NCBI GenBank assembly: GCA_012517235.1 | Contig: JAAYVI010000065.1 | Span: forward strand, 1-50,506 | Reading direction: 5' to 3' | DNA from: Elusimicrobiota bacterium | Lineage (GTDB): Bacteria; Elusimicrobiota; Elusimicrobia; Elusimicrobiales; UBA9959 | Length of the DNA: 50,506 nt | Shown here: positions 13,295 through 24,857 of the stretch, in pieces | Layout: each line of letters begins with the position of its first letter | Numbering within the stretch: the stretch's first letter is position 1 | The notes under the pieces: generated by a model | The model's database searches: none | What the model was told of the DNA's origin: nothing | What the model saw: the letters and a program-made list of their open reading frames with translations, nothing else | Program-made: the position numbers and the translations under genes

Positions 13295-13930
13295 ATGGAA
13301 GCCATTCTTCAAATTCCGGCATTGTTTTTTTCGATAATAATACACGAATTTATGCGCGGATACGCCGCATATATAAAAGGCGACGATACGGCTTATCTTT
13401 CCGGAAGACTTACTTTAAATCCTATTCCTCATATAGATCCCGTAGGCACATTAATACTGCCCGCATTGGCATATTTTTCTCATATGCCTTTTATAGGCTG
13501 GGCCAAACCGGTTCCGGTAAATCCTTACAGAATGAGAGATCCCAGATACGATATGGTTTTTGTGGCGGCCAGCGGGCCCGCATCCAATCTGGCTCTGGCT
13601 TTTTTAAGCGCCGTTTCTCTTAAGATTTTATCTCTTGTGGGATTTTTCTATTTTTCTTTTTCTACGCCTTTCTATTATCTCTTAACTTTTATGGTTTATA
13701 TAAACATAGCTTTGGCTTTTTTTAATTTGATTCCCATTTATCCTTTGGACGGCAGTCAAATACTGCTCGGGCTTTTGCCTTATAAAGCTCTTCAAATATA
13801 CGAAAGACATATTCCTTACGGTTTTTACATAATAATATTTTTGGCTTTGGCCGGAATTTTTAAGTATATAATAGTTTATCCCATGGAAATAGTGCTTAAA
13901 TTATTTTCTCTTATGGGATTGGCGGTATAA
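13295..13930 (+). CDS. Site-2-protease (M50) homologue with substituted zinc motif
   Basis: 211 residues with about five membrane spans, matching the short M50B intramembrane protease family: a hydrophobic N-terminus, GRLTLNPIPHIDPVGT (48-63), GWAKPVPVNPYRMRDP and the C-terminal NLIPIYPLDGSQ with the third-ligand Asp. The usual HExxH is HEFMR here (His17, Glu18, Arg21). The second zinc-binding histidine is replaced by Arg, encoded by CGC at 13355-13357, one transition away from CAC. It may be inactive, use another ligand, or reflect a strain variant or base error. The stop overlaps the trpS start by one base. Confidence 0.85.
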   Translation: MEAILQIPALFFSIIIHEFMRGYAAYIKGDDTAYLSGRLTLNPIPHIDPVGTLILPALAYFSHMPFIGWAKPVPVNPYRMRDPRYDMVFVAASGPASNLALAFLSAVSLKILSLVGFFYFSFSTPFYYLLTFMVYINIALAFFNLIPIYPLDGSQILLGLLPYKALQIYERHIPYGFYIIIFLALAGIFKYIIVYPMEIVLKLFSLMGLAV

Positions 13931-18954: not shown

Positions 18955-18983
18955 TTGACATGTTTTTATTTTTTGTATATAAT
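18955..18983 (+). promoter_or_regulatory. Consensus sigma-70 promoter of the efflux operon
   Basis: TTGACA (18955-18960), exactly 17 bp, TATAAT (18978-18983). Both boxes match the housekeeping consensus perfectly, the only such case in this window. Transcription should start near 18990, inside the operator. Confidence 0.85.
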
Positions 18984-19002
18984 TTACTTACCGGTAGGTA
19001 AA
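18983..19002. promoter_or_regulatory. Palindromic operator, probable TetR autoregulatory site
   Basis: A 20-bp imperfect palindrome centred on CCGG (18991-18994): half-sites TTTACTTACC and GGTAGGTAAA, with one mismatched pair. It overlaps the end of the -10 box and the expected transcription start, just before the gene for a TetR-type DNA-binding domain. This is the classic position for repressor self-control. Confidence 0.8.
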
Positions 19003-19004
19003 CT

Positions 19005-20858
19005 ATGAGAAAAATGAAGATTTCCAAAGAAGACATAATAAAAAAGGCTCTCGAACTTATGGCGGAAAACAGCCCGGATTCCGTTTCTATGAGAGAAATT
19101 GCTCAAAAACTTTCCGTTACAAAGCCGATGATATACTATCATTTCAAAGATAAAGAAGATCTTATAAAACAGGTTTTTTTCTCCAAGGCGAAAGAATTAG
19201 AAGAAATAAAGTTTGATACGGATAAGAATCTTTCCGTAGAAGACATAGTTTATGCCATAGTCAAAAAATATTACGATTTTTTAAATTCCAATCCGGAAGC
19301 GGTAAAATGCGTGATGAAAATATTTGACGCGCCGGAAGAAAGCCCGATAAGAAAATACGCTTTGCAGATGAGGGAAAAAAACAGGGAAAAAGTAAAAGAA
19401 GTTTTAAATCGTTTGGCTGCCGAAGGGAAAATAGATAAAAAGGAAATAGATTATATAATACATATGATTTCCGCTCTTTTATCTTATCAAATATTTGAAA
19501 TGAGAGTTTCAAATAATCTTATTTCGCCGGATCTTTTAAAAAAACTTTCTAAAATAGCCGCTTACGGAGTTAAAAAGATAAACGCGGTATTTCTTTTGGC
19601 TTTATTATCTTTGCCGATTTCGGTTTTTTCTCAGATTAGCGCGGAAGACGCCGTAAATATGGCGATGTCTAAAAATGTTTCGGTTCTAAACGCTTTGGAA
19701 ACTCAAGAGATATACTCTCAGAAGATAAGAGAATATTGGGGAGGAGTTTATCCCAATATATCCTTATCCGCTTCTTATTCCAGAAACATAGAAAAGCAAA
19801 GTCTTTTCTTTAACGGAAATAAAATAGAAATGGGTCTGGATAATTCGTATTCCGGCAGTTTGGACTTGAGTCAAATTCTATGGGCGGGAGGAAAAGTCGG
19901 AACCGGGATAGAAATGGCGGAGATCTATGCCGACAGCGCGTCCGAGAATCTTTCTTCGGCAAAAAAAACGATAAAAAAAATAGTCAAACAGACCTATTAT
20001 GCCGCGGCTTTAATGAGAGAAATGCTTAATATACAGAAAGAAAATTTGGATATTTCCAAACAGCATCTCGAAACTATAAAACAGCAGTATGAGAAAGGTC
20101 TAAAAAGCGATCTGGAAGTAATGCGTCAAGAGGTCGAGGTTTCAAATAATGAACCGAGTCTTATAAAAGCCGAAAATGCCTACGAACAGAGCTTGCTGGC
20201 TTTAAAAAATGTCATAGGTATGGATCCCGATGAAAAAATAGAGCTTTCTTCCGGCCCTTTGTGTTCGGATTCCGGCGAATTTGAAGAAAGCCGTTTATAT
20301 GATCTGGCTTTGAAAAATAGGGCCGATTATAAGCTTGCCGTTCTTAATTTGAGTTTGGCACAAAAGCAGTTGAGACTTGAAAAAGCCGGACATTGGCCCA
20401 ATCTTACTGCCTTTGCTTCCAGAGCTTTTTCCGGTCAAAGCGATTCGGGGTTTCCCGATTCTTCTCAAAGATCGTGGAGTTTAACGGCGGGAGTAAAATT
20501 TAATATGCCCATTTTCAGCGGTTTTTCCGTTTCTGCTCGCGTAAAACAAGCGGAAGGCTCGGTAAAGATTGCCGAAAGAAATTTGAAAGATTTGAAGAGA
20601 AAAATAAAAATAGACGTCAAAAGCTCTTTTTTGGATTTAAAAGAAGCTCAAAGAAGACTACTTTCACAAAAAACTTCGGTTGATACCGCGAGAAAAGCTT
20701 TGCAGGCTACGGAAAGCAGATTTAAAAACGGTTTGGCCTCAAGATTGGAATTAAACGATGCGGCTTTGGCCTTAAATAAGGCGGAAACGCTGGCGGTTCA
20801 GGCAGAATATGACTATTGCGGAAATATGGCCAAATTGGATTGGGAGATCGGAAATTGA
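19005..20858 (+). CDS. TetR-type repressor fused in frame to a TolC-family outer-membrane efflux protein
   Basis: One uninterrupted 617-codon frame holds two proteins. Residues 1-188 are a TetR regulator: a helix-turn-helix (about 8-55) with SMREIAQKLSVTKPMIYYHF, then a helical ligand domain. Residues 189-210 (V-K-K-I-N then a hydrophobic stretch ending VFSQ) are a textbook Sec signal peptide. From about 211 onward is a TolC-type channel with the repeated antiparallel-helix pattern (GLKSDLEVMRQEVEVSNNEP and GLASRLELNDAALAL). At the junction GGAG stands at 19566-19569, but no ATG, GTG or TTG follows at useful spacing in any frame; the nearest in-frame ATG is at 19500. It may be a true fusion, a signal-peptidase-split protein, or a lost stop/start. 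Confidence 0.85.
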   Translation: MRKMKISKEDIIKKALELMAENSPDSVSMREIAQKLSVTKPMIYYHFKDKEDLIKQVFFSKAKELEEIKFDTDKNLSVEDIVYAIVKKYYDFLNSNPEAVKCVMKIFDAPEESPIRKYALQMREKNREKVKEVLNRLAAEGKIDKKEIDYIIHMISALLSYQIFEMRVSNNLISPDLLKKLSKIAAYGVKKINAVFLLALLSLPISVFSQISAEDAVNMAMSKNVSVLNALETQEIYSQKIREYWGGVYPNISLSASYSRNIEKQSLFFNGNKIEMGLDNSYSGSLDLSQILWAGGKVGTGIEMAEIYADSASENLSSAKKTIKKIVKQTYYAAALMREMLNIQKENLDISKQHLETIKQQYEKGLKSDLEVMRQEVEVSNNEPSLIKAENAYEQSLLALKNVIGMDPDEKIELSSGPLCSDSGEFEESRLYDLALKNRADYKLAVLNLSLAQKQLRLEKAGHWPNLTAFASRAFSGQSDSGFPDSSQRSWSLTAGVKFNMPIFSGFSVSARVKQAEGSVKIAERNLKDLKRKIKIDVKSSFLDLKEAQRRLLSQKTSVDTARKALQATESRFKNGLASRLELNDAALALNKAETLAVQAEYDYCGNMAKLDWEIGN

Positions 20859-20875: not shown

Positions 20876-21763
20876 ATGAAAAAAATAATTTTGATAAGCG
20901 CGGTTTTAATTTCTTTTTTTGCTCTTTCCTGCAAGAATAAAGAGGCGGAAGCTTTTAATAAAATAGAAAAGGATGTTTTTTTTGTAAAAGCCGAAAATCC
21001 GCAAATAAGAACCATTTCCAATGAGATAGTTTTGGGAGCATCCCTTAAAGCTATGGAAGAGGCGGTAATTTATCCGAGAATAAACGGCAAGCTTACCGAA
21101 AACGTATTAAAAGAAGGAGATAGCGTATCCAAAGACCAAACGATAGCTTATGTAAAAAAAGACGAAGTGGGCGTAGTTTACGAGCCGGCTCCCATACCTT
21201 CCACCATAGACGGAGTCATAGGCAGAATTTATCAAGATCCCGGCGCGGACGTAAATATTCAAACTCCCATAGCTTTGGTAGTTAATCAGAAAAAGATAAG
21301 AATACAAATGGATATGCCGGAAAAATATCTTTCCGGAATTTATAAAGGCCAGAAGGTTTCTTTTAAGGTAGAGGCTTATCCGGATAAAGTTTTTAGCGCT
21401 AAAATAGAAAAAATAAGTCCGGTGGTGGATAAGGTTTCAAAAACATCTCTTGTGGAAGCGGTTGCGGATAATTCTTCGGGATATCTTAAATCAGGAATGT
21501 TTTGCGAAGCCAGAGTGGCTTTAAAAGAAGTAGATAATGCTTATGCGGTTCCTCTTTCCGCAATAGTATATAAAGAAAAAGTTCCTTATATATACGTTTT
21601 GGACGAAAGCGGGCATTCCGTAAAAGAAGTCAAAGCCTCTTTGGGAATATCGGATTCCCAATATGCTCAGGTTAAAAATATAAATCTAAAGGATAAAATA
21701 ATCACAGTAGGCCTTTACGGGATATACGATAAGGCTAAAGTATATATATCGGAAAACGATTAA
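20876..21763 (+). CDS. RND efflux periplasmic adaptor (lipoprotein)
   Basis: Links the inner-membrane pump to the TolC channel. The start at 20876 follows a CGGAGG site and begins a lipoprotein-like signal ending FFALSC (Cys19); the open frame extends to 20816 but that part overlaps the TolC gene. 295 residues, shorter than typical AcrA. The lipoyl halves (around GDSVSKDQTIAYV and GVIGRIYQDPGADV) are separated by only about 25 residues, so the long alpha-helical hairpin that normally contacts TolC is absent. The beta-barrel and membrane-proximal parts (about 135-295) look normal. Confidence 0.88.
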   Translation: MKKIILISAVLISFFALSCKNKEAEAFNKIEKDVFFVKAENPQIRTISNEIVLGASLKAMEEAVIYPRINGKLTENVLKEGDSVSKDQTIAYVKKDEVGVVYEPAPIPSTIDGVIGRIYQDPGADVNIQTPIALVVNQKKIRIQMDMPEKYLSGIYKGQKVSFKVEAYPDKVFSAKIEKISPVVDKVSKTSLVEAVADNSSGYLKSGMFCEARVALKEVDNAYAVPLSAIVYKEKVPYIYVLDESGHSVKEVKASLGISDSQYAQVKNINLKDKIITVGLYGIYDKAKVYISEND

Positions 21764-21776
21764 TTAAGAGAAAAAT

Positions 21777-24700
21777 ATGAAAATAATAGAATTCTCCGTC
21801 AAAAGACCGGTTTTTACAACCATGCTTTCCACTGCGATAATGGTTTTGGGTTTTTTTGCTTTCGCAAGATTGGGAGTGGACCTTTACCCAAACGTGGAAT
21901 TTCCTTTCGTAACCGTTCAGACTTCTCTTAGAGGAGCAAGTCCTGAAGAGATAGAATCTTCCGTTACAAAAATCATCGAAGAAGCCGTAAATACCGTAAG
22001 CGGCATAGAAGATCTTTCTTCTACAAGCTACGAAGGCCTTTCGGTTGTTATGATAAAATTCCAGCTTGAAAAAAATCCCGATGTGGCCGCTCAAGAAGTC
22101 AGAGATAAAGTAAATTCGGTTCTAAGTCAGCTTCCTCAGGGTACGGACCAGCCGGTCGTGAGCAAAGTAGATTTCGGAAGTATGCCGGTTATGAGCGTGG
22201 CCGCGGCTTCAAAGAGAAACATAATAGATTTTACCCGGATAGTCAAAAAACAAATAAAAGAATCCATAGAGACCGTAAACGGAGTCGGAGGGGTTGATTT
22301 AATAGGCGGAAGAGAAAGAGAAATACATATATCCGTGAATCCTCTAAAACTTCAAGCGATGAACATATCCATAAAGCAGGTTAAAGACGCTCTTACTCAG
22401 CATAATGTCGAAATACCAGGCGGTAAAGTGGAGCAAAAAGACAAAGATTATGTTCTGCGCACATTGGGGAGAATATCTTCTCCCAAGGATTTTAACGATA
22501 TAGTCGTTACTATGGTTAACGGCGCTCCGGTTAAAATATCTGATATAGCAAAAGTCGAAGATACCGGCGAAGAAATACAAACAATATCGTATCTTAACGG
22601 AGTCCCGGCCGTTACTTTAAGCGTCAAAAAACAATCGGGAACAAATACCGTAGAAGTTATAGAAAACGTAAAAAAACGTTTGGAAGAAATTAAAAAAACT
22701 TTGCCTAAAGACATAGAACTAAAAGTAATAGGCGATCAAAGCGTATTCATAAAAGGCTCCGTTCATGCGGTATACGAACATCTGGTGCTCGGCTCTCTTT
22801 TGGCTTCTTTGGTAATACTTCTTTTTATCGGCGATTGGAGATCTACGATAATATCTTCCGTGGCCATACCGGTTTCTCTGATAGGATCTTTCGCTTTGAT
22901 GGAAGCCAGCGGATTTACTTTAAATAATATGACTCTTTTAGGCTTAATGATAGCCGTAGGTCTGGTAATAGACGATGCCGTAGTTATGATAGAAAATATA
23001 CATAGACATATGGAAAAATACGACAAAAGTTCGTATGAGGCCGCGGTTTCCGGATCGGCGGAAATAGGTTTTGCGGTAATAGCGATTTCGGTTTCTTTGC
23101 TTGCCATTTTTGTTCCTTTGGCTTATATGTCGGGTATGATAGGAAGATTTTTAAAAAGCTACGGTCTTTCCATCGCTTATGCCGTAACAATAAGCACTTT
23201 TGTGGCTTTGACTATAACTCCCATGCTTTCGTCTTTGTTTCTTAAAAAAACTCACGGTAATTCTAAGTTTCAAGATTTCGTGGATAATTTCAATAAAATA
23301 TTGGCCGATAAATACTCTCATATACTCCAATGGGCTTTGGCTAATAGAAAAAAGATGATAGTGTTTGCGGGGATTACAATTTTTTCCATGTTTCCTCTTT
23401 TGTTTTTTATAGGCAAAGATTTCCTGCCTCAGGACGATACGGGTATGTTTCAGATTAATATAACCGCTCCGGAAGGCACAAATCTTGAGATGATGAAAAA
23501 AATATCTTTCCAAATAGAAGAGGAAGCAAAAAGAATACCTTATGTCAGAGAGAGTCTTGTTATGGTGGGCTCCGGACAAGGCAATGTAAATTCTTCCAAT
23601 CAGGCTTCTTTGTTTTTTGAACTTACCGATGCTTCGAAAAGAAGCGTTTCTCTTATGGAAATAATGTCTTCGGTAAGAAAAATGCTCGCCAAATATAAAG
23701 ATTTAAGAACCGCGGTTATAGTCGGAGGACAGGGAAGCATAAGCGGAATGAAAAATTATGAAATGGAATACGTGATAACCGGCCCGGAGCTTAAAAATCT
23801 TCAGGATTATTCCTTGGCAATATTGGATAAACTTAAAACTATGAAAGGCGCGGTAGATTTGGATACGAGTTTTACTTATGCCAAGCCGGAATATAGAGTA
23901 ATAATAGACAGAGAAAAGGCCGCTCGATTGGGAGTAAAGCCGGAAGATATAGCGACTTCTCTTAGAACTATGGTCGGCGGCGCCGAAAATATAACGAAAT
24001 ACAAAGAAGGCGACGACCTTTATCAAGTGAGGGTTAGAGCCGATAAGTATTACCGTTCTTCTCCGGAAACGGTAAAATCTCTTATGGTCCCCGCCGCTCA
24101 AAATAAAACGGTAAGATTGGATACGATAGCGCGCTTGGAAGAAGGATTCGGTCCGACACAAATAGATCGTTACAACAGACAAAGAAAAATATCGGTATAT
24201 GCCAATGTGGAAAAGGGCGCTTCTCTAAGCAAACTTTTGAGTGTTTCCGATAAGACATTCGAATCTTTTAAAGCCCCTGCTCAATATAAAGCTCAGCCTA
24301 CGGGCCGAGCGAAAGAATTCGGAAGAATGCTTAAAAGCTTTTTGACCGCTTTTATATTTGCTTTTATATTCGTATATATAGTTTTAGCGGCTCAGTTTGA
24401 AAGCTTTGTATATCCGGTTTCGATAATAGTCGTTTTGCCTTTGACTTTGCCTTTTGCGATAATTTCTTTGTTTTTAACGGGCTCTAATATGACAATATTT
24501 GCTCTTATGGGTATGTTTATGTTGTTTGGAATAGTAAAGAAAAATTCCATACTTCAAGTAGATTATACCAATACTTTGAGATCCGAAGGTAAGCCCAGAT
24601 ATGAGGCTATGATAGAAGCGAATAGAACCAGACTTAGACCCATACTTATGACGACATTAACTTTGATTTTTGCCATGCTGCCTACGGCTTTCGGTTCCGG

Positions 24701-24857
24701 ACCCGGAGCAAATATGAGAAGATCTATGGCATGGGTGATAATAGGCGGACAGTCGTTGTCTTTGCTTATAACTCTTTTAATGACACCGGTTACATATTCC
24801 CTTATGGACGACGCTCAAGAATGGATTAAAAGAAAATTAGGATTTGGCGCCAAATAA
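21777..24857 (+). CDS. RND family efflux transporter (AcrB/HAE1-like)
   Basis: Proton-driven inner-membrane pump. 1026 residues with the family layout: TM1 near 10-30 (FTTMLSTAIMVLGFFAFARLGVD region), a large periplasmic loop, TM2-6 (about 335-490), a second loop, and TM8-12 at about 850-1010. The proton-relay aspartates are in VGLVIDDAVVMIEN of TM4, and GxxxxNPxL-like RLRPILMTTLTLI is in the C-terminal half. It starts 13 bp after the adaptor. Together with the TetR-TolC gene it forms a complete self-regulated three-gene tripartite pump. The substrate is unknown. It ends 2 bp from the stop of a convergent gene. Confidence 0.94.
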   Translation: MKIIEFSVKRPVFTTMLSTAIMVLGFFAFARLGVDLYPNVEFPFVTVQTSLRGASPEEIESSVTKIIEEAVNTVSGIEDLSSTSYEGLSVVMIKFQLEKNPDVAAQEVRDKVNSVLSQLPQGTDQPVVSKVDFGSMPVMSVAAASKRNIIDFTRIVKKQIKESIETVNGVGGVDLIGGREREIHISVNPLKLQAMNISIKQVKDALTQHNVEIPGGKVEQKDKDYVLRTLGRISSPKDFNDIVVTMVNGAPVKISDIAKVEDTGEEIQTISYLNGVPAVTLSVKKQSGTNTVEVIENVKKRLEEIKKTLPKDIELKVIGDQSVFIKGSVHAVYEHLVLGSLLASLVILLFIGDWRSTIISSVAIPVSLIGSFALMEASGFTLNNMTLLGLMIAVGLVIDDAVVMIENIHRHMEKYDKSSYEAAVSGSAEIGFAVIAISVSLLAIFVPLAYMSGMIGRFLKSYGLSIAYAVTISTFVALTITPMLSSLFLKKTHGNSKFQDFVDNFNKILADKYSHILQWALANRKKMIVFAGITIFSMFPLLFFIGKDFLPQDDTGMFQINITAPEGTNLEMMKKISFQIEEEAKRIPYVRESLVMVGSGQGNVNSSNQASLFFELTDASKRSVSLMEIMSSVRKMLAKYKDLRTAVIVGGQGSISGMKNYEMEYVITGPELKNLQDYSLAILDKLKTMKGAVDLDTSFTYAKPEYRVIIDREKAARLGVKPEDIATSLRTMVGGAENITKYKEGDDLYQVRVRADKYYRSSPETVKSLMVPAAQNKTVRLDTIARLEEGFGPTQIDRYNRQRKISVYANVEKGASLSKLLSVSDKTFESFKAPAQYKAQPTGRAKEFGRMLKSFLTAFIFAFIFVYIVLAAQFESFVYPVSIIVVLPLTLPFAIISLFLTGSNMTIFALMGMFMLFGIVKKNSILQVDYTNTLRSEGKPRYEAMIEANRTRLRPILMTTLTLIFAMLPTAFGSGPGANMRRSMAWVIIGGQSLSLLITLLMTPVTYSLMDDAQEWIKRKLGFGAK

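What the first reader, a model, noticed from the sequence alone, without database searches (positions are those of the whole stretch)
18955..20858. A TetR repressor and a TolC channel encoded as one continuous protein
The frame runs from a full TetR domain straight into a Sec signal peptide and a full TolC domain. There is no stop between them and no ATG, GTG or TTG start at usable spacing near the junction (19550-19620), although a GGAG sits at 19566-19569. If real, a DNA-binding domain would be made on the same chain as an outer-membrane protein. Export could sequester the repressor, or signal peptidase could cut it free, coupling regulator supply to secretion. Alternatives are a non-canonical start (for example the ATA at 19578-19580, 8 nt after GGAG) or a recently lost stop/start.
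Basis: partly seen in the sequence, partly recalled or inferred. Interest (0 to 1): 0.78.

Follow-up and report, generated by a model that had tools for sequence, protein, structure and literature searches.

The report
Conserved TetR repressor–TolC channel fusion protein
In this bacterial family one gene encodes, as a single chain, both the DNA-binding switch that controls a drug-efflux pump and the pump's outer-membrane channel, joined by an export signal; the fusion is in 47 of 59 related genomes, so it is a real evolved design, and how the switch reaches DNA while the channel is exported is an open, testable question.

Summary
ORF 19005-20858 (617 aa) is one open frame: complete TetR repressor (1-187), internal Sec-type signal peptide (~190-211), complete TolC channel (213-617); membrane-fusion and RND pump genes follow. 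It is not an assembly error. The same fusion, with no stop, occurs in 47 of 59 genomes of the family (10 of 13 genera, about 40-71% identity). All parts are under purifying selection, and all 47 keep signal-peptide features. The proposed ATA start is not supported: that column is mostly Leu/Met/Ala in relatives, 18 of 47 have no ATG/GTG/TTG around the junction, and Shine-Dalgarno matches do not exceed synonymous shuffles. A perfect -35/-10 promoter and a palindrome TTTACTTACCGGTAGGTAAA sit directly before the ATG. This operator is conserved in the fused clade, shared with unfused homologues, and unique in this genome, so the fused TetR domain is very probably a working autorepressor. In the sister family and Nitrospirota the genes are separate neighbours; fusion arose more than once and split again once. 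Most likely the chain is made whole, the internal signal sends TolC through Sec, and signal peptidase cuts, leaving TetR on the cytoplasmic face. Processing is inferred. No published description was found.

The parts
18955..18983 (+). Promoter: TTGACA, 17-nt spacer, TATAAT
   Evidence: 12/12 consensus match; the same -35/-10 layout before most fused relatives
18983..19002 (+). Palindromic operator TTTACTTACCGGTAGGTAAA between the -10 box and the start codon
   Evidence: ACCGGTA core in 46 of 50 fused loci and one-base variants in two more; also before unfused homologous tetR genes; unique in own genome
19005..20858 (+). Fused tetR-tolC gene, 617 aa, stop TGA
   Evidence: same fusion in 47 of 59 family genomes
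19035..19175 (+). TetR_N DNA-binding domain (residues 11-57)
   Evidence: Pfam PF00440, 7.9e-14; 70% mean pairwise identity across the fused set
19176..19565 (+). TetR ligand/dimer domain, ending in helix 175-187
   Evidence: AlphaFold2 model helices; Foldseek match to MtrR 8fw8, TMt 0.78; dN/dS 0.08-0.35
19566..19569 (+). GGAG inside coding sequence for Gly-Val; position corresponds to the ribosome-binding region of tolC in unfused relative G024
   Evidence: no enrichment of such matches over synonymous shuffles
19572..19637 (+). Internal Sec-type signal peptide (about residues 190-211: KKINAVFLLALLSLPISVFSQI)
   Evidence: basic residues and hydrophobic core in 47/47; strict AXA in 38/47 and relaxed cleavage motif in 47/47; low-confidence flexible segment 190-208 in the model
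19641..20855 (+). TolC/OMF channel domain (residues 213-617)
   Evidence: two OEP repeats; TolC fold, 1ek9 TMt 0.75
20876..21763 (+). Membrane-fusion (HlyD/AcrA-type) protein, same operon
   Evidence: HlyD_D23 6.9e-19; lipoprotein-like adaptor ORF follows most fused relatives
21777..24857 (+). RND pump (AcrB-type), same operon
   Evidence: ACR_tran 2.5e-279

Best explanation
An RND efflux operon whose own TetR-type repressor and TolC-type outer-membrane channel are translated as one polypeptide. Shown by sequence: one conserved frame, two complete domains, an internal signal peptide with a cleavage motif, and a conserved operator at its own promoter. Inferred: the TetR domain folds in the cytoplasm; the internal signal enters Sec with the N-terminal side inside; the TolC part crosses the inner membrane; signal peptidase I cuts after the small-x-small motif; TolC goes on to the outer membrane. 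The TetR domain, still carrying the signal-peptide helix, stays on the cytoplasmic face of the inner membrane (or is freed by an intramembrane protease), dimerises and represses the operon by covering the site between the -10 box and the start codon until a pump substrate releases it. The fusion fixes repressor and channel at a 1:1 synthesis ratio.
For: Same uninterrupted fusion in 47/59 family genomes, 10 genera. Purifying selection in every region: dN/dS HTH 0-0.16, ligand domain 0.08-0.35, junction 0.14-0.54, TolC 0.07-0.23. All 47 keep basic + hydrophobic + small-x-small signal features; strict AXA in 38. Operator conserved in fused and unfused states and unique in the genome. 18/47 lack any ATG/GTG/TTG from 16 codons before to 6 after the ATA column; CTG at that Leu column (14/26) equals background 0.52. 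Model shows TetR fold, flexible 190-208 and TolC fold. Genome holds signal peptidase I and an M50 intramembrane protease.
Against: No protein or RNA data. In 24 of 47 relatives some in-frame start with a 4-nt or longer Shine-Dalgarno match lies in residues 150-199 (shuffles mean 19.1; 17 of 300 reach 24), so weak internal initiation in some species is not excluded. A signal peptide after a folded 190-residue cytoplasmic domain is unusual. Cleavage, tethering and repression are inferred. TetR proteins are dimers and TolC trimers, so an uncleaved form would be hard to assemble.
Confidence: 0.62

Rival explanations
1. The frame is fused but TolC is mainly made by internal initiation at the junction (near-cognate ATA/CTG or scattered ATG/GTG/TTG codons), so the two proteins are largely separate and the fusion is a read-through by-product.
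For: GGAG 8 nt before ATA in the window; in unfused G024 the equivalent GGAG precedes an ATGA start; ATG at that column in 9/47; Shine-Dalgarno-preceded starts slightly above shuffles (24 vs 19.1).
Against: The ATA column is L/M/A/I/F/V/T in relatives; no start at all in 18/47; CTG not enriched; no Shine-Dalgarno enrichment at that column (0.85 vs 0.97); positions of candidate starts are scattered.
Confidence: 0.17
2. The uncleaved full-length fusion is functional: TetR acts as repressor only while the precursor waits in the cytoplasm, and export removes it, so repression reports on export capacity.
Against: Signal peptides keep small-x-small cleavage motifs in 47/47, which predicts cutting; pulling a folded TetR dimer through Sec is implausible, so only the timing version survives.
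Confidence: 0.12
3. The TetR part is a decaying relic fused by chance to tolC.
For: Two loci have lost parts: L079 (G041 second copy) keeps only the HTH start, and L087 (G163) keeps only the last TetR helices behind a separate tetR.
Against: HTH is the most conserved region (70% mean identity), low dN/dS, conserved operator.
Confidence: 0.05
4. Assembly or sequencing error in this genome.
For: The window is from a fragmented assembly of 140 contigs.
Against: 47 independent assemblies share the junction without a frame-breaking indel.
Confidence: 0.01

Closest known systems
AcrR/MtrR-type TetR autorepressors of RND efflux operons
   Same: TetR-family regulator next to and (inferred here) controlling an RND pump operon; palindromic operator at the promoter; structural match to MtrR 8fw8
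   Different: Here the repressor is covalently joined to the outer-membrane channel of the same pump instead of being a free soluble protein
TolC/OMF outer-membrane channels
   Same: Two OEP repeats, barrel strands and long helices, MFP and RND partners downstream
   Different: The signal peptide is internal, 190 residues into the chain, instead of N-terminal
Transmembrane transcriptional regulators (ToxR, CadC, ChiS/TfoS; PMC11856585)
   Same: Cytoplasmic DNA-binding domain followed by one hydrophobic segment and an extracytoplasmic part
   Different: The extracytoplasmic part is an outer-membrane channel behind a cleavable signal peptide, not a sensor domain; anchoring not shown
iRhom2 cleavage by signal peptidase (PMC7618786, abstract only)
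   Same: Precedent for signal peptidase cutting a membrane protein so that a cytoplasmic part acts in signalling to DNA
   Different: Mammalian protein, unrelated; analogy only
Adjacent tetR-tolC gene pairs in the sister family and Nitrospirota
   Same: Homologous domains, same order; same ACCGGT-centred operator in the sister family
   Different: Two proteins, separated by a stop codon or an ATGA overlap

Membership tests
TetR family of regulators | N-terminal TetR_N helix-turn-helix | tested here: met
   PF00440 7.9e-14, above curated cut-off
TetR family of regulators | All-helical ligand/dimer domain | tested here: met
   helices 50-187 in the model; MtrR match
TetR family of regulators | Palindromic operator at the regulated promoter | tested here: met
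   (sequence only)
TetR family of regulators | Dimer binds operator and is released by a ligand | not testable with these tools
   needs gel shift and ligand screen
TolC/OMF channels | Two OEP repeats with barrel strands and long coiled helices | tested here: met
TolC/OMF channels | N-terminal Sec signal peptide | tested here: not met
   signal features present but internal, residues ~190-211; the TolC domain itself is a member by sequence and fold, the whole chain is not an ordinary OMF
TolC/OMF channels | Trimer in the outer membrane | not testable with these tools
   needs localisation and structure work
Transmembrane transcriptional regulators (ToxR/CadC type) | Cytoplasmic DNA-binding domain plus one membrane segment | tested here: met
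   (sequence only)
Transmembrane transcriptional regulators (ToxR/CadC type) | Extracytoplasmic sensor domain on the same mature chain | tested here: inconclusive
   C-terminal part is TolC behind a cleavage motif; mature state unknown
Transmembrane transcriptional regulators (ToxR/CadC type) | Regulates while anchored in the membrane | not testable with these tools
   needs fractionation

The most novel reading that the evidence does not exclude
A bacterial polyprotein in which signal-peptidase processing of an outer-membrane channel produces, in strict 1:1 ratio, a membrane-tethered (or protease-released) TetR repressor of the same efflux operon, so that export and processing of the channel set the amount or place of its own repressor.
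Probability: 0.4. Interest if true: 0.82.

Novelty: new variant of a known kind. Interest (0 to 1): 0.62.

Why it matters
A soluble DNA-binding repressor and an outer-membrane channel are expected to live in different compartments. A fusion kept across 10 genera, and formed independently elsewhere, means that bacteria can make both from one chain. It gives a natural system to ask whether internal signal peptides after a folded cytoplasmic domain are processed in bacteria, whether TetR repressors work when membrane-tethered, and whether efflux-pump channel export feeds back on transcription.

Tried and rejected
Assembly error: rejected (47 genomes). ATA or CTG start: not supported. Conserved ATG in the HFMIE stretch of most relatives as a hidden tolC start: it is Ile in the window's genus and lies inside a TetR helix. 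Fused TetR-TolC in Nitrospirota (one search hits): they are separate, often overlapping genes. Apparent 685-aa fusions in the sister family: two frames with one in-frame TAA between them. Literature searches for a described TetR-TolC fusion found nothing relevant; the library holds only open-licence papers. No NCBIfam model covers both domains.

Full report
OBSERVATION. The ORF starts at ATG 19005 and ends at TGA 20858, 617 aa with no internal stop. The stretch 18955-18983 named at the start of the finding is a perfect TTGACA-17-TATAAT promoter. Pfam gives TetR_N at residues 11-57 and two OEP repeats. An AlphaFold2 model built on 14 fused homologues (mean pLDDT 76.5, pTM 0.52) shows TetR helices 8-187, a low-confidence stretch 190-208, then the TolC barrel strands and long helices. 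Foldseek matches E. coli TolC 1ek9 (TMt 0.75) and the efflux repressor MtrR 8fw8 (TMt 0.78). The membrane-fusion protein (20876-21763) and the RND pump (21777-24857) follow.

CONSERVATION. Of 59 genomes of the same family, 47 in 10 of 13 genera hold the same fusion as one open frame, about 40-71% identical to the window. Of the other 12, G010 has the orthologous pair split with an ATGA overlap and a fresh signal peptide; G007 and G024 have a related tetR next to a different, separate tolC; the rest showed no orthologous pair. Sequencing error or recent accident is therefore excluded as the cause.

SELECTION. In eight close pairs dN/dS is 0-0.16 for the HTH, 0.08-0.35 for the ligand domain, 0.14-0.54 for the junction and 0.07-0.23 for TolC (short segments, so single values are noisy; the script stopped after eight pairs). 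Mean pairwise identity is 70, 50, 41 and 61%. Both domains are maintained.

JUNCTION. All 47 have K/R residues, a hydrophobic core and at least a relaxed small-x-small motif; 38 have strict AXA. Typical sequence: LPxRLARLICAGARHLKAALVILLLSPLLAxA. The window's ATA (19578) lies in a column with L 26, M 9, A 5, I 2, F 2, V 2, T 1. From 16 codons before to 6 after this column, 18 of 47 have no ATG, GTG or TTG. CTG there is 14 of 26 Leu, equal to the general 0.52. The longest Shine-Dalgarno match upstream of the column averages 0.85 against 0.97 in synonymous shuffles. In a wider window (residues 150-199), 24 of 47 have some start with a 4-nt match against 19.1 expected (17 of 300 shuffles as high); the positions scatter, and the window has none. 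A conserved internal start is thus not supported; occasional species-specific ones are not excluded.

OPERATOR. TTTACTTACCGGTAGGTAAA (18983-19002) lies between -10 and ATG. The core pattern is found in 46 of 50 fused loci, and L007 and L035 have one-base variants. The remaining two, L083 and L084, belong to a separate fused lineage. Unfused homologous tetR genes of the sister family carry the same ACCGGT-centred site. In the own genome the exact site occurs once (read on both strands), and the only other hit has 3 mismatches. This is the signature of autoregulation; DNA binding itself was not tested.

ORIGIN. In Nitrospirota tetR and tolC are separate, often overlapping. In the sister family they are separated by a stop, in several genomes by a single in-frame TAA with the tolC ATG right after. 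In the TolC tree (96 rows, quick method) 49 fused rows form one clade with the split G010 inside it; G169 and G212 are fused nearby; L083/L084 and G235 are fused on distant branches; at least 4 changes of state are forced by starred branches. So fusion recurs and can reverse. In unfused G024 the tetR end carries GGAG before the overlapping ATGA, at the position of the window's GGAG; I infer that it is the old tolC ribosome-binding region.

MECHANISM. The best reading is one chain, internal signal, Sec export of TolC, signal peptidase cleavage, and TetR left at the cytoplasmic face. The genome encodes signal peptidase I and an M50 protease, so cleavage and later release are possible. Transmembrane regulators can bind DNA while anchored (PMC11856585, abstract), and signal peptidase can release a signalling part in mammals (PMC7618786, abstract). 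Processing, tethering and repression are inference.

TAXONOMY. The collection hides names. Contig G067:C1 of the sister family is 1,643,562 bases, which I recall as the length of the Elusimicrobium minutum Pei191 chromosome; if so the window is from another family of Elusimicrobiales. This rests on memory and was not tested; only gives the lineage of that species.

VERDICT. A real, old, selected gene fusion with a new architecture built from two well-known families; function plausible and directly testable.

Noticed in passing
L079 (G041 second copy): A second fused copy in which most of TetR after the start of the HTH is deleted in frame, keeping the operator-like site, the terminal helix, the signal peptide and TolC.
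   Followed up: partly
L083 and L084 (G014, G055): A second, divergent fused TetR-TolC lineage with a different promoter region and another separate tetR just upstream; an independent fusion.
   Followed up: partly
L087 (G163): TolC still carries the last TetR helices, while a divergent full-length tetR-like gene lies just upstream, as if the regulator had been replaced.
   Followed up: partly
L090 (G235): TetR-TolC fusion in a distant family of the phylum, apparently independent.
   Followed up: partly
L064, L065, L068-L070: tetR and tolC in the same frame with a single TAA between them; stop readthrough would give the fusion.
   Followed up: no
window 19308-19310 (residue C102 of the fused protein): Cys102 in the TetR ligand domain is invariant in 14 aligned fusions, with K101 and K105; possible sensing residue.
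   Followed up: no
window 13670-13840: M50 peptidase-like match on the same contig.
   Followed up: no
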